A stretch of 64,000 bases of DNA from Apostichopus japonicus. Lineage: Eukaryota; Echinodermata; Holothuroidea; Aspidochirotida; Stichopodidae. Both the position numbers and the translations under genes were made by a program. Positions 1,269 to 59,700 of this stretch are shown here, piece by piece. The notes below the pieces were generated by a model. The model worked only from the letters and a program-made list of their open reading frames with translations. It was not told the origin of the DNA and did no database searches. The stretch's first letter is position 1, and every line of letters begins with the position of its first letter. Location: NCBI RefSeq assembly GCF_037975245.1, contig NC_092574.1, positions 23,935,713 to 23,999,712 on the forward strand, read 5' to 3'.

Positions 1269-4200
1269 TCAAAGAGTTGTCTCTTTCATTTCTACAAACT
1301 CAATCAACAATTTTAATTCTTTACCTTTGTCTGGCGTGCCTCCAGCTACTACCACGTTCCTGATTGCCTCCGTGCTCTTCAAGCTGGTGGTCCTGCAGCA
1401 AGACCCAAGCAACATCAAAACGACTGGTAAGAACACTAAACCGTGCAGCATTCCAAACGCCATCACCAATAGGTTGACCTTAGCAAACGACGTAAAGATG
1501 TAGCTTTTGGTCGCCAGCAGAGACAGAAGCGAGAGAAGCGTGGACACGCCGCTCTGTAAGATGGGAAATCCAAGAGAATGCAGGGCCCCGGCTACTTTCT
1601 CTCTCGGGGACAATCCGGACCTTTGGGAAATATAGGCGTAGCACACATGAGCCGAGAAGTCAATGCTGAATCCAATGCAGATGATGAGGTTTATCATTGA
1701 GATACCATCCAGTGAGATACCCAGATAAGACATCCCTCCGACCACACCGATTTCAATCGAGATGACCGAGGCCGTCACAATGAATGCGACTGCTACGCTC
1801 GGTATCAAGATCAGGGAGACTATTAACATGGACACGATTGCGATGCACAATGTTTGGATCGTGTTCGGGAGGATGATCACATACTGCTCGTAGACGACAA
1901 ACTGAGGGGAGAAGACGACCAGTTCCATGGAGTCATTATCTGCTAGCTTACGTGTTTGGATCATAACGTCGCTCTCCTTGAGGGTGCTGTCTACAGAACC
2001 AAACATGATCAAGAATCGAGAAGATGTTATGCTCCCGGACTCGTGGTCGAAGTTAATATCTTCGGAGTACTTTTCAAATAGAGGTTCTTGTAAAAATCTG
2101 TCCTGCAAGAGTGACACAAAGCTGTCTTGGTCAGACACATTGGCCGATTCCGCAAATCTCTTGAAATCATCCAGCCAAAATTCAGAGCCCTTGACTGTCC
2201 CTAAATATGAGTTGTCTTTGAAACGAGTCATTAATTGACCTAATTTGAGTTGCACATCAGGTTCCCAATAGTTCACATCCCCTTTAATCACTACAGACAC
2301 AGTCGGTCCAAGTTCATTAAAATATTCGGAAGACGTTCGGAAAAATGCATTCGTTACCGAGCCCTCCTCGGCTAAATTGGATAATTGAAGTCCTTCCGTG
2401 AGGTTAAAGCAGCCGTACACACCAAACACGAGATATATTGCATAACAAAATGCTACAACAGTCATCACAAAAGGCCCAGTTACAAAGGGTGAAAACTGGT
2501 TTCTAAAGAACCTCATGACAGCATGCTCTCTACTCTGGCTTGTACCTTCATCTACCTGGCCCCCCGTGCCACCGGAACAAAACATTCGATATATGACGGA
2601 CGGGGACTTTTCGGGGGGTAATACCTCTCGACAGGTGTAGCAGTGTCTATTTTGCGCTTCTCTTCGTCCTGAGAAAACCATCATCGATGCAAAGAATGTG
2701 ACTTGAAAGACAAAATCCAATAAAATTACAACCCCAGTATACAAGCAAAAAGACCGTACAGCTGGTAACGGGGTGATTGCTGCCACGCAAAAACCCAGAA
2801 AATCGGTCAGGCTTGTGATGGTGATGGATATGGCGGCTTCTGACAGCGCAGTGGACATCCTGTCCTCGACTGTTGCGTAACGGTCGGTTCTCCTCCACGC
2901 CGACACCATGATAAACATGTCGTCAATCCCGATACCTGGAAATACGACAGAAAATGTCACTGATTAGGATAGCATAAAAACCTTTCACATTCATGCTTAA
3001 TATATATTACAGGTCTGTAATTGTATGGAGACATTTTTGCTGTATGAGAGCTCAAGTCTGGGGATTTCCCACAATTTCACTCATCGGTCACAAGTGTCTC
3101 TGCTTGTACTGGGAGGATGATTGATGGCACAGAGAAATGATCAAATGCAACTATTTGTACACTCTTCCTCATCTTCCCAAATCCATGATTTATCACTTTT
3201 GACATATATAAATATAGAGTAAACTGAATAGATCTGTGACGTGCGATCACATATAATGCTAATACTGCTACTACTACTAGTACCACTCACCCATAGCCAA
3301 GAACGGCATGGAGGCCACCACTTGGTTAAACGGAACACCGCAGTAAGACAGCAGTCCAACCCCACTGCTGATTGCAATCAACGCCGAAAGGATACCGCTG
3401 TTGGCCAGCCAAGGCTTGCTCTGTACCCAGTCTGCCATCAGGCAAGTCAGTACGGCAAAGATGGTCAGGAAGGAGAAAGTGACGCAAAAGTACGGCAGGA
3501 CACTCACGGCTAACTTGTTCTGAGCTTCGTCCAACGCATCGGATGTGTAATAAACAACTTCAATGTTGCCGAAGGTGGTACTCTCTAGTTGCTTGGCAAC
3601 AGCATCCTCCCACAATCCAGACCGGTCGAACATTTCGATAGGATCATTCCTTAAGAAAAAAAGGAGGGTGACTGCCTCCGTGTAAACAATCTCACCATTT
3701 TCTTCCACGCCGGGGGCGATGAATCCATCAAAATAAATCCTTTCATTAGATGGCAGCTGTCCAAATGGCATGGGTAGATACACTGAAGAAGAATTCATCG
3801 CTTGCAGATAGTCCCACCATACCAGCACCGGGTTCGCTACACACGATCCTTTCCACTCTGCACATACTGATTCATATCTTATAAGCGTGCCGTCAACAGC
3901 CTTTGCAGTGGTAGCAAAAATAGTATCCCGTAACTGTAAAATTTCAGCTACGCTGTCCGTGCGTAATATATTCTTCCCATCTTTGGCCGTGACGATTACG
4001 ACGACCGACCTCTGGCTAGTTGCCGTCACCCGGGTCGGTGTAAACATCTCAAAGTTGGTTGGGAATAGTTCTTCCAAAGTTTCTCTTTCTGATTGAGCTC
4101 TGCTTGCTATTGGTGTGAATAGGTTTTCGGTATTGTTCTCATACTTGAGGAATACTACACCACTGCTCAATACTAGAGCAGTAGACAAAGAGAGCAGCAA

Positions 4201-4287
4201 CACCGCTAGAGGGTGTCTAGCGACAAAACGTCCATGATATCCGAACAAACGAACCAGGCGAGATTGCACACAATCAAATTTTGCCAT
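1269..4287 (-). CDS. Patched domain-containing protein (PTCHD3-like), two exons
   Basis: Exon 1 is 4287-3291 and exon 2 is 2935-1269 (stop TGA). The 355-bp intron is GT-AG and phase 1, giving 887 residues. It belongs to the Patched/RND membrane superfamily; relatives move sterols or lipids or act in Hedgehog-type signalling, but the substrate here is unknown. TM1 is about residues 27-47, then a luminal loop with NNT and NSS glycosylation sequons. A sterol-sensing-type bundle follows (about 265-460) with GIGIDDMF created exactly across the splice junction. A second luminal domain and second bundle carry GFSIDFSAH. Both GxxxD motifs of the family's proton-relay helices are present. I chose the start at MAKFDCVQ because the following RLVRLFGYHGRFVARHP is the usual PTCHD N-terminus; an in-frame ATG 13 codons upstream (4326) is possible. 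Family assignment is firm; exact orthology (PTCHD3 versus ptr-type) is not. Confidence 0.92.
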
Positions 4288-4326
4288 CGTGTCGATGCGA
4301 ACCAAAGAAGAAAACATACAAAACAA

Positions 4327-5590
4327 CCTTCAACAAAACCAAATGAGGGATCCAACATGTAAACCAATTCCTTTTAAAAACAAATGGGAATGTTCTCATC
4401 AAACAACAAACATGGTATAAACCAATCCTTCCAATGTTTGATTAGCATATATGTTCTACCTACAGTATTATGGCTCATGTTCCTAACTTTTTGTATTGAT
4501 GAGACAACACTGACATATAACAATTAGCAATTTTTAAAACAAAAAACAGTATACTGTAACACATTACAAATAACCACTTCTGAACAGAGGTGTTTTAAGA
4601 ATAGACGAAAGCCCAAATGGAAATCACTAGAATGAGATTATCAGTGAACCTTCATGAAAGATACATGTAAAAATGATTGCGAGGAAAAACAAGTGAAAAA
4701 CAACTTCCAACTTCTTGAGATGAGCGAAATAACTCTTGCAGCAATGCTATACAACCGCTAGACTTCTGCTTGACTTCATGACTTCTGCCAGGACTGTTGC
4801 CACAATTCTGTTTTCCCAAAAACGAACGGTTGTCAGTCACATGCAGCTTTAAAGACTTAAGGGGAGATGTATATTGATACTTAAATGTAGAAAGCACATC
4901 CATAGCCTTTCACTGTGAGACTTTGTACCCAGCCTTTCCAGGTTGCCTACAGTACCACCACCTGTTGCAAAGAGAGAAAAGATAAATACAAAATAAATAT
5001 TTAAAAAAATTCATTCCGGTTATCAACAATATTAAATAAAGATAACACTGATGCTGACTTTCTTTTCCATTTCACAACAATGATCATAAGAAAGATAAAG
5101 TAGTTACAGATTTGGCACCGTTTTTTATGTATTACATTATTCTTATCGTGTTTTGCATAACTGATACCAGCAATAAAATCTGACAAGTAATGCAAGACCT
5201 TATCTTTGCTACGGAAGGTAAGCCAGAGGCAATGAAAGAGGGTTCAAAATTTGGGGGTCGCACAGACTTTGAACGGCGATGGGTTATTGGGACTTTGATT
5301 CAATGCGGAAGCAACCTGAAAACATCACAACAAAATTTACTCTTTGTGTACTGCAATCTGTACCACAAATTGCATTCATTGAATGTAACTCTCAGTTAGT
5401 CACTATTTTTCCCCAAAAAAAGGGCATTTTACAATTTCTGATAATTTCTCTAGAAAAAGTCATTTTTTTAAATGAGGCAAGGGCATTTTTTCACCATAAA
5501 AAGAGGAATTTATATAGTAACAAGAGTCCAACAGACATTATGGTTCCTTACTTAGTGGAATATTACTATGTCAACACCCAATATGGTAAT
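4327..5590. other. Upstream flank of the Patched-like gene, no gene seen
   Basis: This AT-rich stretch should contain the promoter and any 5-prime UTR exon of the minus-strand Patched-like gene. I could not identify a TATA box, CpG cluster or further coding exon in it. Confidence 0.4.
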
Positions 5591-8401: not shown

Positions 8402-8517
8402 ATGCATACATGGCCAGGTCGATAACGCGGAAACGCGGAAACCGCGGAAATCGAGAAACCGGTTTCAATATCAACGGTTTCCGCGGTTTCCGCGTTATCG
8501 ACCTTGCTATATAGTAA

Positions 8518-9530
8518 GGTCGAAAACGCGGAAACCGCGGAAACGAGAGGAATTTGTCAAGGGAGGGTGACGAAGTCTTTTGGGCGCATTTCAGCCTATA
8601 TTCGCCAAAGAGGGGTGCGGGTTTAAAGCTAGTAAATGTAGGTCGAAAACGCGGAAATCGTACTTTACAATGGATGAGTTAGATTATTTTGTCAAGGGAG
8701 GGTAGTGTAGGTCGAAAACGCGGAAATTTTTTTTTTTTTACAATGGCGAAACTAGATGATTTTGTCAAGAGAGGGTGAAAAAAATTTTGAGCGCATTTCA
8801 GCCAGTATGCGCCAGGAGGGGTGGGGATAGAAGATTTTGTTTCACTAAATGCCGGTCGAAAACGCGGAAATGTTTTTTTACACAATGAATGGCGAAACTA
8901 GAGAATTTGTCAAGGCGGAAGGTTAAGAGTTTTCGGCGCATTTCAGTCAATATGCGCCAGGAAGGTGAGGGGTTGTAGGCTGTTTTTTTTACTAAATGGA
9001 GGTCGAAAACGCGGAAATGTTTTTAGCAAAGGCGGAAATAGAGGAGTTTGCTAAGGGAGGGAAAAGAAGGGTTTTGGCCGGCGCATTTCAGCCAAAATGC
9101 CAGGAAGGGGGTGAGGAAGGATGTTGAGGCTTTTTCACTTAATGCAGGTCGAAAACGCGGAAAAAGTGTTTGCCAATATGCGCAAGGATGGAGTGGGGGT
9201 ATGAGACTTTTTTCAGTTAGTGTAGGTCGAAAACGCGGAAATTTTTTTTTCACAACATTTTTCACAACTAGATGATTTTGTTAAGACAGGGTGAAAAGGT
9301 GTTTTGGGCGCATTTTAGCAAATAGGCGCCAGAAAGGGGTGAGGTTGAAGTCTTTTCACTAAAGGCATGTCGAAAACGCGATTTTTTTTTTTAACAATGA
9401 CGGAAATACTCTAAATGCATGCAGGAATGTAAAGAAATGTTTTGGTCGCATTTCAGCCAACATGCGCTAAGAAGGGTTTGGGTTTGAAGCTTTTTTCACT
9501 AAATACAGGCAGAAAACTCAGTAATGTTTG
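8518..9530 (+). repeat. Left foldback arm: about 145-bp tandem units
   Basis: GGTCGAAAACGCGGAAA begins units at 8518, 8641, 8710, 8854, 9001, 9147, 9225 and (degenerate) 9367. Full spacing is 143-147 bp; shorter gaps of 69-78 bp look like internally deleted units. Each full unit also carries a TTGTCAAGG(G/C) block and an inner inverted pair, GGCGCATTTCAGCCAATATGCGCC-like. The right arm is the inverted counterpart. Confidence 0.85.
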
Positions 9531-9637
9531 TTAACGTCCATTTGGTATGCAGGGATGGTTCCAGGATTTCTCCGACACGGGAGCTAAGGTCCCCGGAAAC
9601 AATTGTGTGCACGTTGTAATATTAATAAAAAAAATAA

Positions 9638-9640
<3 letters not shown>

Positions 9641-9696
<56 letters not shown>

Positions 9697-9734
9697 CTTA
9701 CACATACATATATATGTATATATATATATATATA
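9641..9734. repeat. (TA)n microsatellite
   Basis: A run of TA dinucleotides with short ACATACA interruptions, inside the central region of the foldback element. The short open frames of alternating Ile and Tyr residues here come from the repeat. Confidence 0.95.
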
Positions 9735-10489
9735 GATAGATATATTTACACATACAGATACATATCTATGTATATATAAATCTAATATTGCCGAAGCGCG
9801 CGGTAATTTGTGGTGTCTTTTTTGGTATATGAGAGAAGTTTGAAGCCCGTATGTCGGTGCGGCTGACACCTGTCGGGGACTGATTTTCCTACATTTATCT
9901 TTATCATAGAATTATCATTATGATGATAAGAAATACACAATAATATATTTTTTTCTTCATGGCTCCCTGACGAAATCATAATTTCCCCTACCAGGGGGCT
10001 AGACCTCCCCGACGAGGGGAAGGGGACTGTTACCCCGCTTCTCCCTCCCCCTCTGGGGCCACCCCGTCGGTATATATAAAGGTGCGTATGTACAATGGCG
10101 GAACTAGAGAATTTTCACAGCTAGGGGACGGCAAAGGAGCTTTTGATCGTTTATGAAAAGAAAATATAAAACCTATGTTTTGGGGCACGATTCGGAGGAA
10201 GTGTATGAACTTGAAGTTGCGAACTACTAGAAGTAAGACAGTCACATTTACAATTATTTGACCGATTGCGTTACAATAAAACTGGCAACCCTGCCATCTT
10301 CCCCAGTATTGGAATACCGGTGTGAAGTTAGATACTAATTCCTCGTTCGACGTTCGCGAATGAGTAACTGCTACCTATTCAGTTACTTATTCGACAATGG
10401 TACCGACGTAACACTTATGACAAGACGAATGCATTCTTACAAGATGTTCAACATTTGGTCGTGGAAAAGAGGTTTATCTGGGTCATTTG

Positions 10490-11175
10490 AACTCTAATGA
10501 CAATGTAAATGGGTACCATAGTGCATCTTGCCCGGTCCAAAGAGTTCTTGACCAACTAAAATGACCACTACATCATCGGTTCTTAAATTAATGTAACGGA
10601 AACGGGACCTGACGAAAAATCACTTTAGGCCCTAATCAAGACTAGCACGTCTTGGACCACCTAACCAATGGGTCATATGAATTCTTAAGACAATGAAGAA
10701 GGATATCATAATGCGTCTTGCCCGGTCCAAAGAGTGCTTGACCAATTAAAATGACAACTAAATAATCACTTATTAAATTAGTGTAACGGGACAACGAATG
10801 AAAAACATTTGGCTCCTAATCAAGACCAGCACGCCTTGGACCACCCAAACAATGAGTCATATGAACTCTACAGACATTGTAGAAGGGTACCGTAATGCGT
10901 CTTGCCCGGTCCAAAGAGTGCTTGACCAATTAAAATGACCACTAAATCATTACTTCTTTAATGAGTGTAACGGGACCACGAACACGCTCTGGGCCCTAAT
11001 CCATGCAGCACGCCTTGGATCACCAAACCATTGGGTAACATGAACTCTAATGACATTGTAGAAGAGTACCATAATGCGTCTTGCCCAGTCCAAAGAGTGC
11101 TTGACCGATTTAAATTACCACTAAATCATTACATCTTTAATGAGTGTTACGGGACCTTGAAAAAGCTTAATGTTT
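10490..11175. repeat. Central 188-bp tandem repeats of the foldback element
   Basis: Four copies are marked by CTTGCCC(G/A)GTCCAAAGAG, with CCC at 10531, 10721, 10905 and 11094 (spacings 190, 184, 189). Each also contains TGACCAATTAAAATGAC and an AAATCATTACTTCTT-like block. This is the middle domain between the two inverted arms; no coding capacity is evident. Confidence 0.85.
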
Positions 11176-11439
11176 TAGTTCTATACGTGTTTATATCAGA
11201 AAATTTCCATTGTACCTCCGTTTGTGTTTACTCTCTTTCTTTTAAGTTTGTTATTTGAGATATCGTTATGTAGAAAACACTTAGATTCGTCGGGTATGAA
11301 GTACTTATATCAAGCTCTACTCAATTATTAGCTTAAGAACCGGTATGCTGAGACTTATGCCATGGCGAAATACTTAAGCTCTGATATTAATAGCCTACGT
11401 CACATTTTCTTTGATTAATGTCTGGAATAACCACCACAA

Positions 11440-12490
11440 AATCCTCTAGTTTCACCATTGTTAAAAAAACATTTCCGCGTTTTCGACCTGTATTTAGTGT
11501 AACAGCCTCAACCCACCTCCCCAGACCTTTGCTGGCGCATATTGGCTGACATGCGCCAGCCAAAACACTTCATTTCCCTCCCTTAGCGAACTCCCCTAGT
11601 TCACCCTTTGTTAAAAACATTTCCGCGTTTTCGACCTGCATTTAGTATTAAAAAAGGCTACACCCCTCCCGCACCCCCTCGTGGCGCATATTGGCTGAAA
11701 TACGCTCAGAATACATCTTCATCGTGCCTAGTTTCTCTTGTTTCGCCATTGTAAAAAACAATTCCGCGTTTTCGACCGGCTTTTAGTAAAATAAATTATT
11801 TTACCCCACCCCTTCTTGGCGCATTACAGCTGAAATGCGCCAAAACACTTTTTCACCCTCCCTTGACAAACTCCCCTAGTTCCGCCTTTGTTAAAAACAT
11901 TTCCGTGTTTTCGACCTGTATTTAGTGTAAAAGCCTCAAACCACATCCCCACACCTTTGCTGGCGCATATTGGCTGAAATGCGCCGGCCAAAACATTTCA
12001 TTTCCCTCCCTTGGCAAACTCCTCTAGTTCCGCCTTTGTTAAAACATTTCCGTGTTTTCGACCTGCATTTAGGGGAAAAGCCTACAACTCCATCACCTTC
12101 CTGGCGCATATTGACTGAAATGCGCCGAAAACTCTTCACCCTCCGCCTTGACAAATCCTCTAGTTTCGCCATTCATTGTGTACAAAAACATTTCCGCGTT
12201 TGCGACCTGCATTTAGTATAAAAAAAAAAAACCTTAGCCCTTTCCCACCCCTCCTGGCGCATATTGGCTGAAATGCGCTCAAAAAACGTCTTTATCCTCC
12301 CTTGACAAAATAATCTAACTCGTCCATTGTAAAAGTACGATTTCCGCGTTTTCGACCTACATTTACTGAAATAGCCTTAAACCCGCACCCCTTTTTGGCG
12401 AATATAGGCTGAAATGCGCCAAAAAAAAAAGACTTTGTCACCCTCCCTTGACAAATTCCTCTCGTTTCCGCGGTTTCCGCGTTTTCGACC
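11440..12490 (-). repeat. Right foldback arm: about 145-bp tandem units
   Basis: TTTCCGCGTTTTCGACC (the complement of the left-arm motif) recurs at about 11472, 11620, 11761, 11900, 12046, 12191, 12341 and 12474, with spacing 133-150 bp. CpG decay (GTG for GCG) is visible in two units. The array mirrors the left arm unit for unit, so the two could pair over about 1 kb. Confidence 0.85.
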
Positions 12491-12636
12491 TTGCTATATA
12501 GCAAGGTCGATAACGCGGAAACCGCGGAAACCGTTGATATCGAACCCGGTATCTCTATTACCGAACCCGGTTTATCGATTTCCGCGGTTTCCGCGGTTTC
12601 CGCGTTTCCGCGTTATCGACCTGGCCATGCATACAT

Positions 12637-14232: not shown

Positions 14233-15640
14233 TGATATCTACTGAACTCAAATTACGGTAAATGACCGTCTTAAGACAGAACCAACGAAAACAACATGTT
14301 GCGAGTAAAATATTCGAACACATACTGAAATCAAATGTCATGCAACACCTGGATAAACACCAAATTTTGTGTGAAAATCAACACGGCTTTCGTAGAAACC
14401 ACTCATGTGAGACACAGCTGATAAATACAACTCATGAGATAGCTAATTGTCTCTTAGACCAAAAACATCAGGTGGACATGATTATTATGGATTTCGCGAA
14501 AGCGTTTGACAAGGTTCCACATCGCAGATTACGGCAAACTTGATCGCTAAGGTATCAGGGGAAAAGCAATTAATTGGACAGAAGCATTCCTCACTCAAAG
14601 AAAACAGCGAGTAGTGATAGATGGTAAATGTTCAGAATGGGTAGATGTGAAATAGCTAGTGTTCCTCAGGGAACAGTTACGGGACCCATGGACTTCCTAG
14701 TGTTTATTAATGACTTGCCTCAGAACTTAACATCTAGTGTGAAACTCTTTGCAGATGATTGCATCGTGTTCAGAAAAGTATCCGGTCCTGAGGATGCTGG
14801 CATGTTACAAAAGGACTTAGATGTGCTCACTGCATGGCAGTCAAAGTGGCAAATGGCATTTAATGCCCAAAAGTGTTATGTTCTGAGAGTGACTCATTCA
14901 AAATCTCCCAAAAAATTCATATACACACTTAATAATACCGAGTTGGCTGAAAAGAAAGAATACCCTTACCTTGGGGTAACACTTACGTCAAATTGGTCAT
15001 GGAACTCACACGTAAATAATACTGCTGCAAAGGCAAACAGAACCCTAGGGTTTATAAAGAGAAACTTACATTCATGCTCAAAACAGGTCAAAAACTTAGC
15101 ATACAAATCTTTAGTGCGACCAACAATGGAGTACTGTGGATCTGTATGGGATCCGTCAACCAAAGAACTTAAACAGAAACTAGAATCCGTTCAAAACAGG
15201 GGTGCTCGGTTCGTAACCGCCGATTACAGAAGGACTAGCAGTGTGTCACACATGAAACAAGAACTGAAATGGGAACCGTTGGAGGAAAGAAGAAGAGTGA
15301 CTAGAGTCTGCATATTACACCAAGCCCAATCGGGTCGCCTTGCCATACCAACGCAAACAATTCTGCGCCCGGTCGTCCGCTCTTCAAGACACGGATCTTA
15401 CATTCAAATTCCCTGCAACAAAAACTGTTTAAAATTCTCATTCATGCCCAAAACACTAATAGACTGGAACGCCCTCCCACAACACATCAAAGAAATCGAG
15501 GACAAGGATAACTTCAAAGCGGCTGTCGCCCAACACTACAGCCAGAAACCAATCACAGCTTAAACAAGTCTGCACCACCCTACTCGTTTTACCCCTTTTA
15601 GGGGAGTTGAGTAGTATCACTCCAGATCCAGATCCAGAAC
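14233..15640 (+). pseudogene. Truncated, frameshifted non-LTR retrotransposon (reverse transcriptase)
   Basis: Open segment 14262-14543 carries QHGFRRNHSCETQL and DFAKAFDKVPH, the early reverse-transcriptase blocks. A middle block reads only in another frame (about 14551-14645). Segment 14628-15563 then carries SVPQGTVTGP, LFINDLP-like VFINDLP and the catalytic FADD, with the C-terminal part (YLGVTL, KSLVRPTMEYC) through a stop at 15561-15563. At least two frameshifts make it inactive. No endonuclease domain or 5-prime end is present. The 3-prime flank ends in CCAGATCCAGATCCAGAAC, probably the tail. The order of motifs fits the Jockey/CR1/L2 group of LINEs; the exact clade cannot be decided. 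Confidence 0.88.
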
Positions 15641-27300: not shown

Positions 27301-30300
27301 AGTGGTCAAAAGATCCTGTCCTGAGTTTGCAAACTTTTACCCTCGACAGGGGCAGATCTAGGATTTTATTAAGTAATTTTGTGGCCCTGGGGTTGTTGAA
27401 AGGGACTCTTATATTGGGGGTTCTGGGTGGGTACACCCCCTTCCCTTAACTGGATCCACAATCTGCTTATTGTTATTTTATCTTGGAAATGCTTCAAAAC
27501 GTTTTCAGTGAGAACTCAGTGAATTCTCTTGGAGATCATATTCCATTGCATTCATGTTTTCATCAGTTTTGTAAGAAGAAAAAAGAAGTTATTATTGATT
27601 CCCCAAAGCAGCTATGTAATGTGTACTTTTTGCTGCTTTTTTTTCTTCTGTCTTTTACTAACATCAGTATCTCCAAGTGTCCATGGTAAAGTAACTATTA
27701 AGTTTGTTTCAGTCTATAAATGCAAGAATGAATTGATGTTGCAGTTAGTGTTCCTTTCTGCCATGCTCTGCTGCTATGCAAATTTTTCTGGAATTTTTCT
27801 GGTTGTCATTCGGAAATCCATGTCCTACACGTGGGTTGTCCGAACAGCAAATTGGTTGCCTAGAGAAATGTTGCAAAAATAACAATGACCAATATGTACA
27901 CTGTAGGAGAAATGTGAAGGTTCGGTAAATGGAACACCAATATGTACTAATATATCTCTAGGAGAGATAGGTAGGTTTTTGTGAATAGAATACCAATATT
28001 TACACTGTAGGAGAGATGCATAGGTTGGGTGAATAGAACACCAATATGTTCACTGTATGAGAGATGTGTAGGTTTAGTGAATAGAACACCAATATGTACA
28101 CTGTAGGAGAAATGTGCAGGTTTGGTGAATAGAACACCAATATGTACACTGTAGGAGAGATGTGTAGGTTTGGTGAATAGAACACCAATATGAACACTGT
28201 AGGAGAGATGTGTAGATTTGGTGAATAGAACACCAATATTTACACTGTATGAGAGATGTAGGTTTAGTGTATAGAACACCAATATATACACTGTATGAGA
28301 GATATAGGTTTAGTGAATAGAACACCAATATGTACACTGTATGAGAGATGTAGGTTTAGTGAATAGAATAACCAATATGTACACTGTAGGAGAAATGTGC
28401 AGGTTCGGTGAATGGACACCAATATGTACACTGTAGGAGAGATACGTAGGTTTGAATAGAACACCAATATGAACACTTTAGGACCATTGTGCAGGTTCAG
28501 TGAATAGAACACCAATATGTACACTGTTGGAATGATGTGTAGGTTCGGTGAATAGAACACCAATATATACACTGTAGGAGAGATGTGTAGGTTCAGTGTA
28601 TCGAACACCAATATGTAAACTGTAGGAGAGATGCGTAGGTTTGAATAGAACACCAATATGAACACTTTAGGACCGTTGTGCAGGTTCAGTGAATTGAACA
28701 CCAATATGTACACTGTTGGAATGATGTGTAGGTTCGGTGAATAGAACACCAATATATACACTGTAGGAGTGATGTGTAGGTTCAGTGTATCGAACACCAA
28801 TATGTAAACTGTAGGAGAGATGCGTAGGTTTGAATAGAACACCAATATGAACACTTTAGGACCGTTGTGCATGTTCAGTGAATAGAACACCAATATGTAC
28901 ACTGTTGGAATGATGTGTAGGTTCGGTGAATAGAACACCAATATATACACTGTAGGAGAGATGTGTAGGTTCGGTGAATAGAACACCAATATATACACTG
29001 TAGGAGAGATGTGTAGGTTCAGTGTATCGAACACCAATATGTAAACTGTAGGAGAGATGCGTAGGTTCGGTGAATAGAACACAACATGTACACTGTAGGA
29101 GAGATGCGTAGGTTTAATGAATAGAACACCAATATGTACACTGTAGGAGAGATGTGCAGGTTTGGTGAATAGAACACCAATATATACACTGTATGAGAGA
29201 TGTGCAGGTTATGTGAATAGCACACCAATGTTGGGGGTTATACAAATTAATCATTTTTACCAGTTTGGAGGTATTTAGTTACAATCAATCCATATTTGAT
29301 GTAAACAACTAGTTGTCTGCCAGATAACCTCTATGAATAGCTGATTTTGGCTGTCCGAACAGAAATTTGGTCACCCCGAACAACAGAACTACTGTACCAT
29401 TAAAAATTTGCTGCTGCTCTGCTGTAATTATGTCTTAAATGTCAAAGACTCAAGTGTAACTGACTTTGGATATGAGAAATTTAAACTTCTTAGACCAGCT
29501 TTCAGGTGTTCTTTGTGTTTGATTAGTAGCAATGTAAGGAAGAATTTTTACCCATCAGCAGAACTGAACAAGGAGTAAATTTAATCACTTGTGAACTTGG
29601 TACATTAATGAAAACGTTTTGCAGATAGTGGAGGCTCATCTTTATACAGTTTGACTGGGAAACATAAAGGCATTTAATTCATGGCGTAACAATCCTCTAC
29701 CAGGGAGTTTTGTTGCATTACATTAATATCTCAGTTGAGCGAGACGTCTGGTTGATTAATTTGACAACAACTGAAGTAAGTGTGTGGTACAAAAGAGATT
29801 TAAAACACAAAAAATGACTTGAAAAATGCTTCATAACACTTAATTTGCTTGTTATTGAGATAAAGGTAGATAGATTAAAAACCTATATTTAACTTTTTAT
29901 TCCTCAGTGCTGGTCAACAGTACAAGTGAAACTGACTTGATTGTTTGCATTTTATTTAGCTCGTCTCCACGGAGGTGCGGTTACTGCCTGCTCTGTTTTA
30001 ATATGTTCAGTAGTTTCTCATGATGTTCAAATTTCAAACAAGTGTTACAGCGGGGTATGCTTGTTACTTAACATGTCTTGTATACCGGCAAGCGTTGTAT
30101 CTGGGCAAGGGGTGGGGACACCTAGGGTGAGGGGAATGTGCTAAGGGGATGTGCTAATTTTAAAAGTCGATTTGAGGATTTTTATGCTGAGGATAAGCAT
30201 CAGTTGCCATGGCCTGAAGTGCTACAGTTTTTCTTTGTAGAATGTCTTGCTGAAAGATTTTCTCCCATGATTAACACATGGATTTATGCACTGTGTCAAA

Positions 30301-53729: not shown

Positions 53730-56700
53730 ATGGATACCATACTAGAGGGTATAGTTGCATCAGATCACAGTGAAGGTGTTAAAAGAGCCCTTGTATCAAA
53801 GGTCCTCGCATCTGCGTCAAATCAAATTCCAGCTGAACAGGCAGCAGCTGTGTTGAGGCTCTCTGCCAGATGGATCTGTAATGAAGACTCCCTCTTTCTT
53901 CAAGAAGTTGGGCAGTTAGCTTTTGAAGCTTGGTCTCGTCACCACAAAGCCGTTCTTCAAACCTACTTATGCCAAACTTTCCTCGTCTCTGTATTCGCCG
54001 ACGAAGTCCGCAACCCTGCCAGAGTTCTACGGTTTGTTAAGGAATGCCTGCGGCTGATCTCCGACACAGATAGAGCTTGTGGTATTCTTCAGAAGCAGTC
54101 AATTTCTCTGGCCAGGGATTATCCCGATATATCTGTTATGGCAGAATTAAGCAGTTTACTATTGGATTATCCCTCCTGTATGCCAGATGGCTCATACGTG
54201 TGTGGCCTGATCCAGTACATGATCAGAAACCTCAGCAAACTAAAGATGCCGGTGACTGAAAGTGACCATAAGAAATGTTTATCGGACGTCACTCTGATAT
54301 CCAAGGCTGTCAACAGCATTTGGCAGAGGAACTTTCAAGCAATAGCTCCCTCTTTGGCTTGTCTTTTCGATGTGATATCAAAGCTACAGGAGGATACCTC
54401 CCCACCACCGTCTCCAGCTCTGGGAAGTTTGGTTCAGTTTATCCCTGCGAACGTTATCGACCTTGTCATCAAGAAGGTCACCACTGACCCCAATGTGTCT
54501 AACGAACAATTGAGAAATGCTTTGACCAGAATAGTCGACTGGCTTTCCTGGCCGGGAGTTCGAAACGTTGACTCATGGGCGATATCATTCTTCAAACACC
54601 TTGCAGTAGTCAAGAAGTTCTCAATCTTGATTCATGTCTCTATAGCTACGGTTGAAACAGTGAGTGTACAATATGATGTGTTATACATACATAGTGGCTT
54701 ATCACAAGTTACTTCTCTCACTAGTTAACAATGTTCCCTCTATTTGAATTCTGATCATCAATGTACACGTTCAAAGATCTCTTGCTGTGCAAATCATTTC
54801 CCAATTTCCATAATAACTTTGTAATCATTTAAAGTTATAAAAGCCCAACAGATTCACAATAATGCTTTTGTCTGTGACAAAATTTACCATTGGGCATTTG
54901 TAGCTGTACAGACCAGAAGGAACAAATTTAGAATTAATAGTTTTGCAGTGTCCGGCTTATGTGTATTCATACTTGAAGATGTTGTCAATAGTGAGTAGTG
55001 ACTGTAGGAGGAGGAGACAACTGGTGTTATGTCCACAGTCAGACTTTGGGTGAACCATCGTCCAGTCTGGTCTTGTCACATTCTAACCTTCAACATTTTG
55101 CTTTGGCTGACTTTTCCTTGTTTTCTGATGCAATTCTCTTGAAACCTTTAATCTCTTGAAACCGTTAATCTCTTGAAACCTTTCATCTCTTGAAACCTTT
55201 GATCTCTTGAAACCTTTAATCTCTTGAACAGTTATTTTACGAGTCTGTCATCTGTCACTGCTGCTAATATGTCTTTATTATGAGTTGGGAGTCTTTTGCA
55301 GTTGCTGCATTTAATGTCACAACCATTATTAGTTACAAATAAAACCAGAATCGAATAAAAGAGTCAAAGGAACATACTCGATAGAGGATGTTTACTTAGT
55401 TTGGTATTGTTTAACAATGAGAGGAATAAATATTCTTTAACTTGAGTTTGATTTGGAAAAATGAAATCATTTAAGTTGTCTTGTATATCTTTATTAATGC
55501 ACATTTCATGATATTTTTTTTTAAAACTGATGGTCATTCAGGTATAACTCCTTCTCTCCTTCACAGGTGTTTCCTAAGCTCTCTTTCCCAATAGTCCGTA
55601 AAGGAGCTTATTCAGTGTTTCAGCATATGATGCTAAGCTTTCAGCACTCACCAGAAGCCTTTCATAAGGTAATCATATTTTATGGTCAATCTTGGTTTAA
55701 GATACACCATCCCCGAAGTGTTTGCTGATTATGCCATCTTTCCTTTTATGGTCTTCTCTCTGATTTCTCCCTAAAGTGTGATACATTTTGACTTTTTTCT
55801 TTATCTGCCAACGTTTACTGTATTTAGAATTTCCTCGACATGAAATTTCCTTGTTGAAATGTTATTTTCCTCTGTGAATATTGTGAATTGTATATTATAA
55901 AACTGAATTGCTGTGATGAAATCATTCACTCTGCTGTACCCAGATGTATTAACAAAATATCACCAAATTTGAAAAACTGATATCTTCGCCATACAAAATG
56001 CTATGAGGATTTGGGTTTGACCTACACATGCAGAATAATTTCAATATCATTGGTCAGTAATCTAATTCAGCCACCAGAAAGTCTTTTTAAAGACATACCA
56101 CTAAAGTGTTTGCTGATTAGACTACTACTGCCTATACTACTACTTACTTAATACTACTGCTGTACTGCATACTTCAGAGAATCCCTGTACTAATCAGGGC
56201 ATAATTTAGTAATTTAAAGTAAGTGTAGTAGCCCTATGCTATTGCTGTACTGCATATTTCAGAGAATCCCTGTACTAATCAGGGCATAATTTAGTGTTTA
56301 AAGTTTGTGTTTAAAGTTAGTGTAGTAGCCCTATACTACTGCTGTACAGGGAATCCCTGTACTAATCAGGACATAATTTAGTGTTTAAAGTTAGTGTAGT
56401 AGCCCTATACAAATGCTGTACTGCAAATTTCAGTGAATCCATGCACTAATCAAGGCATAACTTAGTTATTTAAAGTTAGTGTAGTAGCCCTATACTACTG
56501 CTGTACAGGGAATCCCTGTACTAATCAGGACATAATTTAGTGTTTACAGTTAGTGTAGTAGCCCTATACAAATGCTGTACTGCATATTTCAGTGAGTCCA
56601 TGCACTAATCAAGGCATAACTTAATTATTTAAAGTTAGTGTAGTAGCCCTATACTACTGCTGTACTGTATATTTCAGAGAATCCCTGTACTTATCAGGAC

Positions 56701-59700
56701 ATAATTTAGTGTTTAAAGTTAGTGTAGTAGCCCAATACTACTGCTGTACTGCATATTTAAGAGAATTCCTGTACTAATCAAGCATAATTAGTTATTTAAA
56801 GTAAGTATAGTAGCCGTGAAGGCTTTGTACTTCGTCTCTCATAAAACACTCTGGTTCCTGTGTACAAAAACTGCTATACATCCTTCCACTTGTATAGCAA
56901 TTTGCCCATTTTTGCCCTGTTCAGTAATGCCTAATTTGTAACAGAATTCCACACACTTCACTCTAATGAATCTTGTTATACTTAATACCAATGATAGCCA
57001 TGGATTAATTTCTTGTTTTCAGATCGCAAGTCAGGTACCAGATATTGTGTCTAGACTACAGGTTGAGAACTCTGCTAGTAGTACGGACTGTTGTAAGAAT
57101 CTCTCTGAGTTACTCTACACACTTATGTACCAGTTTCCTGGCTACCCTGAGGTTTATGTGCCCATCATTGAAGCAATAAAGGTAGGTTACACACAGGACC
57201 CTCAAACTATTGGGAGGAGGGGCACCCAAATTGGGTCATTAGACTTTCAGTGGGTCATGGGATTTTTCCAGACTTTGAAAAAAATTATCTACTTTTTAGA
57301 TCAATTAAGTTACTTTTTCTTGTGGTAACTTCAAACCTATATTCCAAGCTAATTTCATGCATTCTGATTATCAGTTCTGAGGGGTAGGGGTCTGGTGGGG
57401 CATGGAATATTCTGTGTGATGGTCGTAAAATTTCTCCAACGGCTGGGCTAGACAGAATAGCTGTAGTCACTGCAAGCATGATTGCTTATAAGTAAACATG
57501 AACATGTAATAGATGGGAGATTTTGAAACCTGTAGTCACATTCAAGCTATGGTGTATTAAATTTACGTTTTCTTTCCTGGGAGTTTTCAACATGCAATTA
57601 TTTTGCTTTGTAAATAAAACAAAGATTCTAATGCGATATCGAAATAAAATGATATAATTCCAATTTTTCAACCTAAAAGTTGATGTGGCAAACTTTTCAA
57701 AAATAGCATGATTTATGGGTCAACCCTGTCCCAACAATATCGCCCTAGATGTGTAATCGGTTCAGGTAGAATCTTGAGTATAAATTAAATTGTAAGGCTT
57801 GGTTGTAATGACAATTCCATTCTTTTAGGGTTAAAGGGTTTTCTGAGTACAATTTCTTTTAAAAAATTGTGGAAATTTTCAGCAAACTTTTAAAAATTTA
57901 CTATGAGAAATGATGTATAGAATTAGGCTGAATGCTAAGGAGAGGCAACCCAAGCCATGGTTGACCTCTTCTTTATGGTAGAGGTGTTACAGATCCTCGA
58001 AGCTTCGCAGATGATGTTCAAAAGGCAGTGCATATCTGGGGATGCTCACAGACTTTCCCCTATTCTATGGCAAAACTTGTTCACATACTTTTGTGTGTTA
58101 TGGTACCACCCATATCGTAGACTAACCACAAATCAGTTCATAACGCCAGTTGAACATTGAAATGATACATCATGAAATGTATTTGATTGTTCCTCAGGGT
58201 TTCCCAATACCACCAGAAGAGGTTATGAAAGCTAGTCTTCTGCAGGCAACTTGGACGGCAAACAAAAGTTTGTTTGGTCTCTCATCTAAGTTTGCACCTC
58301 GCTCAGAAACTGGAAAAGCAGGACTAGTTAATCTTGGCAATACATGCTACATGAATAGTATTATCCAAGCCCTATTTGTGATTAAAGGGTAAGTAACTCG
58401 TTTATAATCTATTAAACTGTTCTTTACAAGTAAACATACGGGAAGAGTCACCTGTAGACATTCATCTTTAATCCTTTCCATTGGTCTGAGTGACCTTGTT
58501 AGCATTGTTATACTGAACTGACATGTTCAAAGACAGGCAGAGGTTGAAAATCTTAAAGCTCAAACCTCAAGAGATTTGCTAAATGCTGCAAGCAATATAT
58601 TCATCACTCTCAACTAAGATATGGTTTCTGATTGAAGAAAGCCACCATGAGACTGTCATAACAATATGAAACTCTCTACATGTGGGTCCAAATCATGTGA
58701 CCTATTGTGTTGTGATGATATTGACCTCGTTACATGCACAGTTCCGTGCAGGGGGATAGGAAACTTCCAAAAAGTGGGGGGGGGGCACAACATCAGAGGG
58801 GCACTTTCTCATTCCATAACCACCACTCGTTATGCTATAAACCTATACACACTCGCCATATCACTTAAATACATATGTGTTAGTATGCTATCAATACTAT
58901 TTATTGAGATTGTTTATTGTTAACCATGCTACAAAAAGATATGGGATGCCATTTTAAAAATAGCATGTACAGACTAAAAATAAATAATTAAAATAAAATA
59001 TTAAAATTAACAAAGGCTTAAGATATCCAAAAGACAGTTCTTCATCAAAGGGGCACATTTTATTTGCCAGTGGGGCACATTTGCTATTTTGGAAATAATG
59101 GGGGTGGGGGCTTGTGCCCCTGCGGCTCCTACCCCCCTGGTTCCGTGTCTTATGTACACAGTTACAAGTAGTGTTCAACCGATTATGCATAACAGAAAAT
59201 ACCGATTACCGATCATTTTTTCCATAATCGTACCGATTCCGATTATTTGAAAATGCGAAAATATCCCGTATATACGAAATCGGCAATAAAGTTTGACAGA
59301 AACAATAATTGTTGTGATTTTCCCCTGTTTCCTTTTGCTTCGTTGTTATACAAGGCTCTAAGGTATCATTTTGTATGTACCAAATTACCTCTGGAGTTTC
59401 TCGCAAAGAAAAAAAAAGTGTATTTTTTTTTAAATTTCCAAAATACGGAAATATGACATCCTACCTAGTCAGTACTGTGCTAAGCGAATGGCCTAACCAC
59501 CTCGACGTGAATGTCACCTGTTAATGGCTTGAAATGGGCTAAGAATAGTTACTCAAAATATCCATCTCAAAAAGTATCTCAGACAAACCATCCATCTTCA
59601 ATCTTTACCAAAGTGTAAATTTTAATGACATGTTGCCTTCATTCCGACATTATTTTCTACTTATTTTCAGTATTATACTGTTTATGAACAAATAGAAATG

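What the first reader, a model, noticed from the sequence alone, without database searches (positions are those of the whole stretch)
8412..12626. Complete 4.2-kb foldback element with mirrored 145-bp arrays and a perfect 10-bp target duplication
Both termini, both terminal hairpins, eight roughly 145-bp units per arm in mirrored orientation and the 10-bp direct repeat ATGCATACAT can all be read directly. The element has no transposase but keeps strict internal order: hairpin, TATA palindrome, array, central 188-bp repeats, array, palindrome, hairpin. Foldback elements with tandemly built arms are known in sea urchin (TU) and fly (FB); this motif set (GGTCGAAAACGCGGAAA) is not one I recognise.
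Basis: partly seen in the sequence, partly recalled or inferred. Interest (0 to 1): 0.85.

Follow-up and report, generated by a model that had tools for sequence, protein, structure and literature searches.

The report
Sea cucumber foldback transposon family
The window holds one copy of a family of jumping DNA in what is very probably the Japanese sea cucumber genome: it carries no enzyme of its own, its ends are long mirrored arrays of one short repeated site, and it usually duplicates 10 bases of host DNA where it lands.

Summary
Window 8412-12626 is one intact 4215-bp element with inverted composite ends, mirrored ~145-bp arrays and a perfect 10-bp target duplication. The assembly (671.58 Mb, 35 contigs) fits the published Apostichopus japonicus one. 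Of 32 copies examined, 26 show both ends; 21 of these have a perfect 10-bp duplication, two have 9 bp, two have 9 of 10, one is decayed. Sizes run from 49 bp to 22.7 kb with one kind of tip (GGCCAGGTCGATAACGCGG, up to 2 mismatches). The 17-bp array motif matches the tip site at 16 of 17 bases and is the most conserved part of the unit, so the arms look like stacked transposase sites. The two arms agree best near the tips. No transposase was found in the interiors read (part of the largest copy unread), and none of 38 MULE-domain hits lies within 26 kb of 75 compared tips. It is a non-autonomous foldback family, new as far as I could search. Mutator-type mobilisation in trans is the best guess but unproven. 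Most large copies carry nested foreign repeats. The empty-site search did not complete. New member of a known kind; moderate interest.

The parts
8402..8411 (.). left copy of the 10-bp target-site duplication ATGCATACAT
8412..8503 (+). left tip: GGCCA + site GGTCGATAACGCGGAAA (8417-8433) and its inverted copy (8487-8503)
8477..8544 (+). left subterminal hairpin around the TATA palindrome TTGCTATATAGTAA
   Evidence: z -9.9
8518..9530 (+). left array: 7 exact GGTCGAAAACGCGGAAA motifs (8518, 8641, 8710, 8854, 9001, 9147, 9225), then decayed units read by eye
9643..9778 (.). AT-rich microsatellite; the foreign insert of the 22.7-kb copy begins next to its equivalent
10479..11155 (+). central tandem repeat, 184-bp period, 3.7 copies
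11472..12490 (-). right array: 8 motifs in opposite orientation, 4 exact and 4 with one mismatch
12464..12531 (-). right subterminal hairpin around the TATA palindrome
   Evidence: z -11.8
12532..12626 (-). right tip, ending CGACCTGGCC; carries a 9-bp step CGCGGAAAC and a 21-bp insert that the left tip lacks
12627..12636 (.). right copy of the 10-bp target-site duplication

Best explanation
This is a complete, non-autonomous foldback DNA transposon of a multicopy family. Shown: near-constant tips, a 9-10 bp target duplication, no coding capacity found, and arms made of repeats of a site almost identical to the tip site. Inferred: a transposase encoded elsewhere (most likely of the Mutator/MULE superfamily) recognises GGTCGA[A/T]AACGCGGAAA, is collected by the tip and the 7-8 array sites per arm, pairs the two ends at GGCC, cuts the element out and inserts it with a 10-bp stagger. 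The arms keep matching mainly near the tips, by conversion or template switching between ends, by selection on the ends, or both.
For: Of 26 both-ended copies, 21 have a perfect 10-bp duplication, 2 have 9 bp, 2 have 9 of 10, 1 is decayed; L039 and L040 are one insertion in a duplicated segment, so 20 of 25 sites are perfect. The exact 19-base tip occurs 57 times on 17 contigs, reversed control 0; with up to 3 mismatches the 22-base tip occurs 211 times (inner inverted sites included), control 0. No ORF above 169 aa in 19 copies; 5 of the longer ORFs from several copies have no Pfam match at E 0.1. The motif is the best-conserved 17-base window of the unit (0.95 against mean 0.71; 42 units from 4 copies; with units picked by another anchor 0.92-0.93 against 0.68, 28 units from 2 copies). 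Mutator inference: MULE duplications are 8-11 bp (PMC6446971, passages); foldback arms occur with a Phantom-type MULE in Tm1 (PMC3169594). Multiple binding sites in long arms were shown for Galileo (PMC3688188, abstract and Discussion).
Against: No transposase linked to these ends was found: 38 MULE-domain (PF10551) hits, nearest 26 kb from any of 75 tips compared, and 12 P-element-domain (PF12017) hits, none within 2 Mb of those tips by inspection. The tip list showed only 100 of 211 places. The 49-bp copy L057 with a perfect duplication shows that arrays are absent from at least one insertion, so they may not be needed, unless it lost them after insertion. The fall of arm identity away from the tip is uneven, more so when gaps are counted. 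Binding to the motif is not tested.
Confidence: 0.8

Rival explanations
1. Same non-autonomous foldback element, but mobilised by a P/Galileo-type (THAP) or another transposase rather than a Mutator one.
For: Galileo is a foldback-like element with a P-type transposase that binds repeated sites in its arms (PMC3688188). The genome holds 12 PF12017 hits, all above the family's cut-off.
Against: Galileo duplications are 7 bp (PMC3573991, passages), against 10 bp in 21 of 26 copies here. No PF12017 hit lies within 2 Mb of the compared tips (by inspection). hAT and KDZ searches did not complete, so other superfamilies are not tested.
Confidence: 0.12
2. The mirrored arrays are a satellite or palindrome that grew in place (inverted duplication), not a transposon.
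For: Units are tandem and diverged, as in satellites. Foldback arms can seed satellites (Tetris, PMC4079207, abstract).
Against: The same ends occur on 17 contigs, with 9-10 bp duplications that differ from site to site. Array spacing is nearly the same in the 4.2-kb copies. Among 19 copies, flanks match each other only for L039/L040 and in short stretches of 26-50 bp.
Confidence: 0.01
3. A sequence-matching process, not selection on binding, keeps the tips and motif alike: conversion or template switching between inverted ends during hairpin formation or gap repair.
For: Presence or absence of a 9-bp step is the same at both tips in 18 of 19 copies (17 of 18 if L039/L040 count once), although both states occur on both interior types (Fisher p 1e-4, relatedness not corrected). 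L038, L039 and L040 have a right arm 98% like W but a right tip of the other kind, 82%.
Against: The 17-bp motif stays conserved between units of one arm whose other parts diverge, which points to selection on the motif. The mixed copy W looks like a simple 9-bp slippage from L036, and L044's two tips differ by a further 8 bp. Copies are related, so independent events are few.
Confidence: 0.3

Closest known systems
Tm1 (Mutator/Foldback family, root-knot nematodes; PMC3169594)
   Same: Foldback composite inverted ends with tandem motifs; mostly non-autonomous copies; target duplication of similar length (9 bp)
   Different: ~14-bp motif C in 1-9 copies instead of ~145-bp units; asymmetric 7-bp outer motifs; an element encoding a Phantom-type transposase is known (abstract, section 9 and first part of Discussion read)
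Tetris (Drosophila virilis foldback; PMC4079207)
   Same: Long ends built of ~220-bp tandem units; no autonomous copy found; 8-10 bp duplications; assigned to Mutator by duplication length and analogy only
   Different: Three structurally complete copies only; external domain of up to 866 bp; no sequence comparison made here (abstract and two sections read)
Galileo (Drosophila, P superfamily; PMC3688188, PMC3573991)
   Same: Long internally repetitive inverted ends; repeated transposase (THAP) sites inside the arms
   Different: 7-bp duplication; P-type transposase known (abstract and Discussion of the first, passages of the second)
FB/NOF of Drosophila and TU of sea urchin
   Same: Classic foldback elements with tandemly built arms; TU is from another echinoderm (recalled; the library gave only a citation of the sea urchin element inside PMC4079207)
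   Different: Sequences could not be compared here; TU's 8-bp duplication is recalled, from no call

Membership tests
Foldback (FB-like) elements | Long inverted ends made largely of tandem repeats | tested here: met
Foldback (FB-like) elements | Dispersed copies flanked by fixed-length target duplications | tested here: met
   21 of 26 perfect 10 bp
Foldback (FB-like) elements | Most copies lack a transposase | tested here: met
   Longest ORF 169 aa in 19 copies; ORFs of L059-L066 up to 236 aa, the longest in a minisatellite; 8 ORFs scanned with Pfam, none above a cut-off; part of the 22.7-kb copy unread
Mutator/MULE superfamily | 8-11 bp target duplication | tested here: met
   10 bp; range from PMC6446971
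Mutator/MULE superfamily | MULE (DDE) transposase between the same ends in some copy | tested here: inconclusive
   38 PF10551 hits, none within 26 kb of 75 compared tips; tip list incomplete
P superfamily (Galileo) | 7-8 bp target duplication (7 from PMC3573991; 8 recalled) | tested here: not met
   10 bp in 21 of 26, 9 bp in 2 of 26
P superfamily (Galileo) | P-type transposase between the same ends | tested here: inconclusive
   12 PF12017 hits, none within 2 Mb of compared tips
TU elements (sea urchin) | Sequence similarity of ends | not testable with these tools
   no TU sequence held; literature search found no TU paper
Rehavkus | 9-bp duplication | tested here: not met
   10 bp in 21 of 26, 9 bp in 2; feature from PMC6446971
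Rehavkus | PHD-finger transposase between the ends | not tested
   no search made

The most novel reading that the evidence does not exclude
The arms are stacks of spare transposon ends: each ~145-bp unit (about one nucleosome core long; recalled) repeats the tip's recognition site at 16 of 17 bases, lacking the GGCC edge. Transposase is gathered along two nucleosome-spaced tracks, and a damaged tip can be rebuilt by copying an inner unit or the opposite end. That would explain why the arms agree best near the tips and why tip length changes in pairs. The 49-bp copy, with a right tip of array type (GGCCGGGTCGAAAACGCGG), would be the limit case: just two tips.
Probability: 0.12. Interest if true: 0.75.

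Novelty: new member of a known kind. Interest (0 to 1): 0.45.

Why it matters
Why foldback transposons carry kilobases of repeats in their ends is an old open question. This family gives a natural series with one kind of tip: 49 bp, 0.65 kb, 1.7 kb, 2.7 kb, 4.2 kb and larger, with the target duplication readable at most of them. It lets one ask directly which part of the arms transposition needs, and how the two ends of one element stay matched. It also adds a family, found in no held paper by its motif, to the repeats of what is very probably the Japanese sea cucumber.

Tried and rejected
Autonomous copy inside the longest elements: L032 (7.8 kb) and L045 (7.2 kb) are long because of other repeats inside, a GGTTCCTTGC-ended satellite-like block and a TTAGTC-palindrome element. 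L060's extra 1.9 kb is a nested element with CAGTGGCGGATCC ends, and L059's extra 2.4 kb (the 7.2-kb copy on C7) has inverted ends GGAAGCCTCGCAAATCTAACCGCC of its own. The extra stretches of L061 were not explained. The 22,688-bp copy on C5 (duplication GTGGATTTAG on both sides) was first suspected to be autonomous or a captured host segment. On its left the foreign part starts next to the AT microsatellite of an otherwise ordinary arm, and on its right it ends near a TA microsatellite. Outside a G-rich minisatellite (ORFs up to 236 aa) the parts read have no ORF above 133 aa; of 5 ORFs of this copy scanned with Pfam one had a match below its cut-off (DUF3707, 17.1 bits against 24) and four had none. 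3.6 kb of it (C5:1917401-1920999) was not read. Probably nested insertion; not proven.

W as evidence for tip conversion: W is the one mixed copy of 19 (left tip short, right long), but its left tip shares private letters with L036's, so a 9-bp slippage explains it better.

L031's duplication was first scored as absent; the flanks printed there read AATATTTATC/AATATTAATC, 9 of 10.

Rows not in the 26: six of the 32 copies (L041, L050, L053, L054, L056, L058) showed one end only or no matching partner in the stretch fetched. In L041 and L050 the similarity stops 1.7 and 0.7 kb from the end; L056 has two ends in tandem; L053 and L054 share the flank of L052, all on C7, so these three are probably one amplified locus, and partner ends are listed at the expected distance but were not fetched.

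Empty site: a joined-flank query for 20 copies was prepared; seven submissions did not complete, so this test was not done. hAT (PF05699; 81, 85) and KDZ (PF18758; 114, 117) searches were likewise unanswered.

Full report
What is there. Window 8412-12626 is 4215 bp, starts GGCCAGGTCGATAACGCGG and ends with its reverse complement, and lies between two copies of ATGCATACAT. From the edge inward each end has: the tip site GGTCGATAACGCGGAAA, a stretch of CGCGGAAAC steps, an inverted copy of the tip site, a TATA palindrome (TTGCTATATAGYAA), and then the array, whose units begin GGTCGAAAACGCGGAAA. The inverted copy and the first array site make a strong hairpin. The motif (up to 4 mismatches, overlaps and tip sites counted) occurs 28 times in the element, 0.2 times in a simulated sequence, and 0 times in the rest of the window. 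The centre has an AT microsatellite and 3.7 copies of a 184-bp repeat.

Host. The window lies in G000:C14, an assembly of 671,581,487 bases in 35 contigs. The published Apostichopus japonicus assembly has 671.6 Mb, 34 scaffolds, 23 chromosomes, scaffold N50 29,647,521 and N90 20,397,903 (PMC10344927, passages); contigs C4 (29,643,483) and C18 (20,392,820) are 4.0 and 5.1 kb from the two last values. The host name is an inference from sizes, not a record. Neighbouring window ORFs are of animal kind: a Patched/sterol-sensing protein and a USP38-like ubiquitin hydrolase.

A family with one kind of end. The exact 19-base tip is found 57 times (30 + and 27 -, 17 contigs) and the reversed control 0 times; the 22-base tip with up to 3 mismatches 211 times, inner inverted sites included, control 0 (100 places shown). 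I examined 32 copies: W, L031-L050, L051-L058 (L051 continued in L059), L060, L061, and the C5 copy seen through L062/L063. Twenty-six show both ends; the tips of these 26 fit the 19-base tip with 0-2 mismatches. Twenty-one of the 26 have a perfect 10-bp duplication, L045 and L047 have 9 bp, L031 and L051/L059 have 9 of 10, and L055 is decayed. L039 and L040 share 500-bp flanks at 100% and are one insertion in a duplicated segment. Lengths of the 26: 49 bp (L057), 652, 1684, 1874, 2716-3019 (four), 3784-4535 (twelve, W included), 5174, 5931, 7163, 7208, 7814 and 22,688 bp.

Interiors. Copies fall into a W-like group with the 184-bp repeats (L036, L037, L038, L039, L040 and L046 match W over the full length at 96.8-98.9%; L031, L032, L033, L044, L047 and L049 in part) and a second group (L034, L035, L043, L045, L048, and shorter L042) whose arms match W at 82-89% and whose centre differs. 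L034 of this group has a tRNA-like stretch at 2001-2075 (Rfam tRNA, 50 bits), so it probably holds a tRNA-derived SINE (inference). Four of the larger copies carry nested foreign repeats (L032, L045, L059, L060), the 22.7-kb one probably does, and L061 was not explained. In 19 copies the longest stop-to-stop ORF is 169 aa. Eight ORFs from several copies were scanned with Pfam; none passed a cut-off.

What the arms look like. Units are conserved unevenly. In an alignment of 42 units from four copies, the 17-base window with the highest mean pairwise identity is the motif itself (0.95; mean of all columns 0.71). Because units were picked by that motif, I repeated the test with 28 units from two copies picked by a different anchor: the motif window, or the same window shifted by one base, still came first (0.92-0.93 against 0.68). 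The motif equals the tip site at 16 of 17 positions, read directly. This is what an array of transposase-binding sites would look like, as shown by footprinting for Galileo (PMC3688188: abstract and Discussion); that paper calls the role of the repeats in foldback and Phantom elements untested. Against a strict need for the arrays: L057 is a 49-bp insertion with just two tips and a perfect duplication CACATATATC. It either moved as such or lost its inside later; I cannot tell.

How ends stay matched. Left against right arm, by 150-bp step, gaps left out, is 97, 96, 79, 93, 87, 64, 68% for W; 97, 94, 78, 93, 87, 64, 68 for L036; 97, 93, 90, 81, 69, 86, 70 for L034; 100, 96, 91, 83, 75, 79, 52 for L048. 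With gaps counted the first step is 81, 85, 97 and 94% and the last 63, 63, 50 and 50%, with dips between (42 and 37% in the third step of W and L036). So agreement is best near the tips, but the fall is uneven. A 9-bp step in the tip is present at both ends or absent from both in 18 of 19 copies, and both states occur on both interior groups. A Fisher test gives p = 1e-4, but the copies are related and L039/L040 are one insertion, so this overstates the case; L044's two tips differ by another 8 bp, and W, the single mixed copy, is best explained by slippage. L038-L040 carry a right tip of the other kind on a W-like right arm, a clear case of tip exchange. Conversion between ends, selection for matching ends, or both would do this.

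Which transposase. A 10-bp duplication fits Mutator elements (8-11 bp, PMC6446971, passages). The foldback form has been tied to a Phantom-type MULE in Tm1 (PMC3169594; abstract, section 9 and first part of the Discussion), and Tetris was assigned to Mutator by duplication length and analogy (PMC4079207; abstract and two sections). I searched the genome for the MULE domain: 38 hits, 14 of them in open frames above 300 aa, none within 26 kb of the 75 tip places I compared. P-element domain: 12 hits, none within 2 Mb of those tips by inspection. The tip list was truncated by the tool, so a linked transposase with poorer tips could be missed. Membership in Mutator is therefore a fair inference, not a result; 'works like a foldback element' is well supported.

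Not done. The empty-site test was prepared but never answered by the server. KDZ and hAT searches also did not complete. No other sea cucumber genome was searched. Three strings of the tip and motif do not occur in the held open-access papers, and no paper there combines Apostichopus japonicus, transposable element and foldback; subscription papers and Repbase were not searched, so an entry may exist.

Verdict. It is a genuine, complete, non-autonomous foldback element, one of a family of about 30 copies or more; the family is new as far as I could search, of a known kind. Its interest lies in the size series with one kind of end and in the tip site repeated through the arms.

Noticed in passing
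window 27888-29229 and 265-469: A 48-bp tandem repeat array (28 copies) and a short array at 265-469 with a similar unit in inverted sense (TGGTGTTCTATTCACC... against ...GGTGAATAGAAC), 27 kb apart.
   Followed up: no
window 56151-56815: An 85/159-bp tandem repeat array of about 8 copies in the stretch between the USP38-like N-terminal ORF and the ubiquitin-hydrolase ORF.
   Followed up: no
window 14628-15563: A 311-aa reverse-transcriptase ORF (Pfam RVT_1), 2 kb downstream of the element.
   Followed up: no
L057 101-149 (G000:C21:13509711-13509759): A 49-bp insertion made of just two tips, with a perfect 10-bp duplication; its right tip carries the array-type base (A instead of T).
   Followed up: partly
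L045 2150-6650: A nested ~4.5-kb stretch with TTAGTC-rich palindromic ends and its own internal inverted repeats with 141-147 bp spacing (arms 3343-3601/3958-4216, 95% complementary): possibly a second, unrelated foldback-like family.
   Followed up: no
L034 2001-2075: A tRNA-like sequence (Rfam 50 bits) inside the centre of a second-group copy; looks like a tRNA-derived SINE nested there.
   Followed up: partly
G000:C5:1915002-1937689: A 22.7-kb copy with perfect duplication GTGGATTTAG; about 20 kb of foreign DNA with a G-rich minisatellite lies between its arms; 3.6 kb not read.
   Followed up: partly
L039 and L040 (C8 and C5): The same insertion with identical 500-bp flanks on two contigs, 99.3% alike inside: a recent segmental duplication or assembly duplication.
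   Followed up: partly
L034 flanks: A 49-bp stretch next to the left end is repeated exactly, starting 237 bp into the right flank.
   Followed up: no
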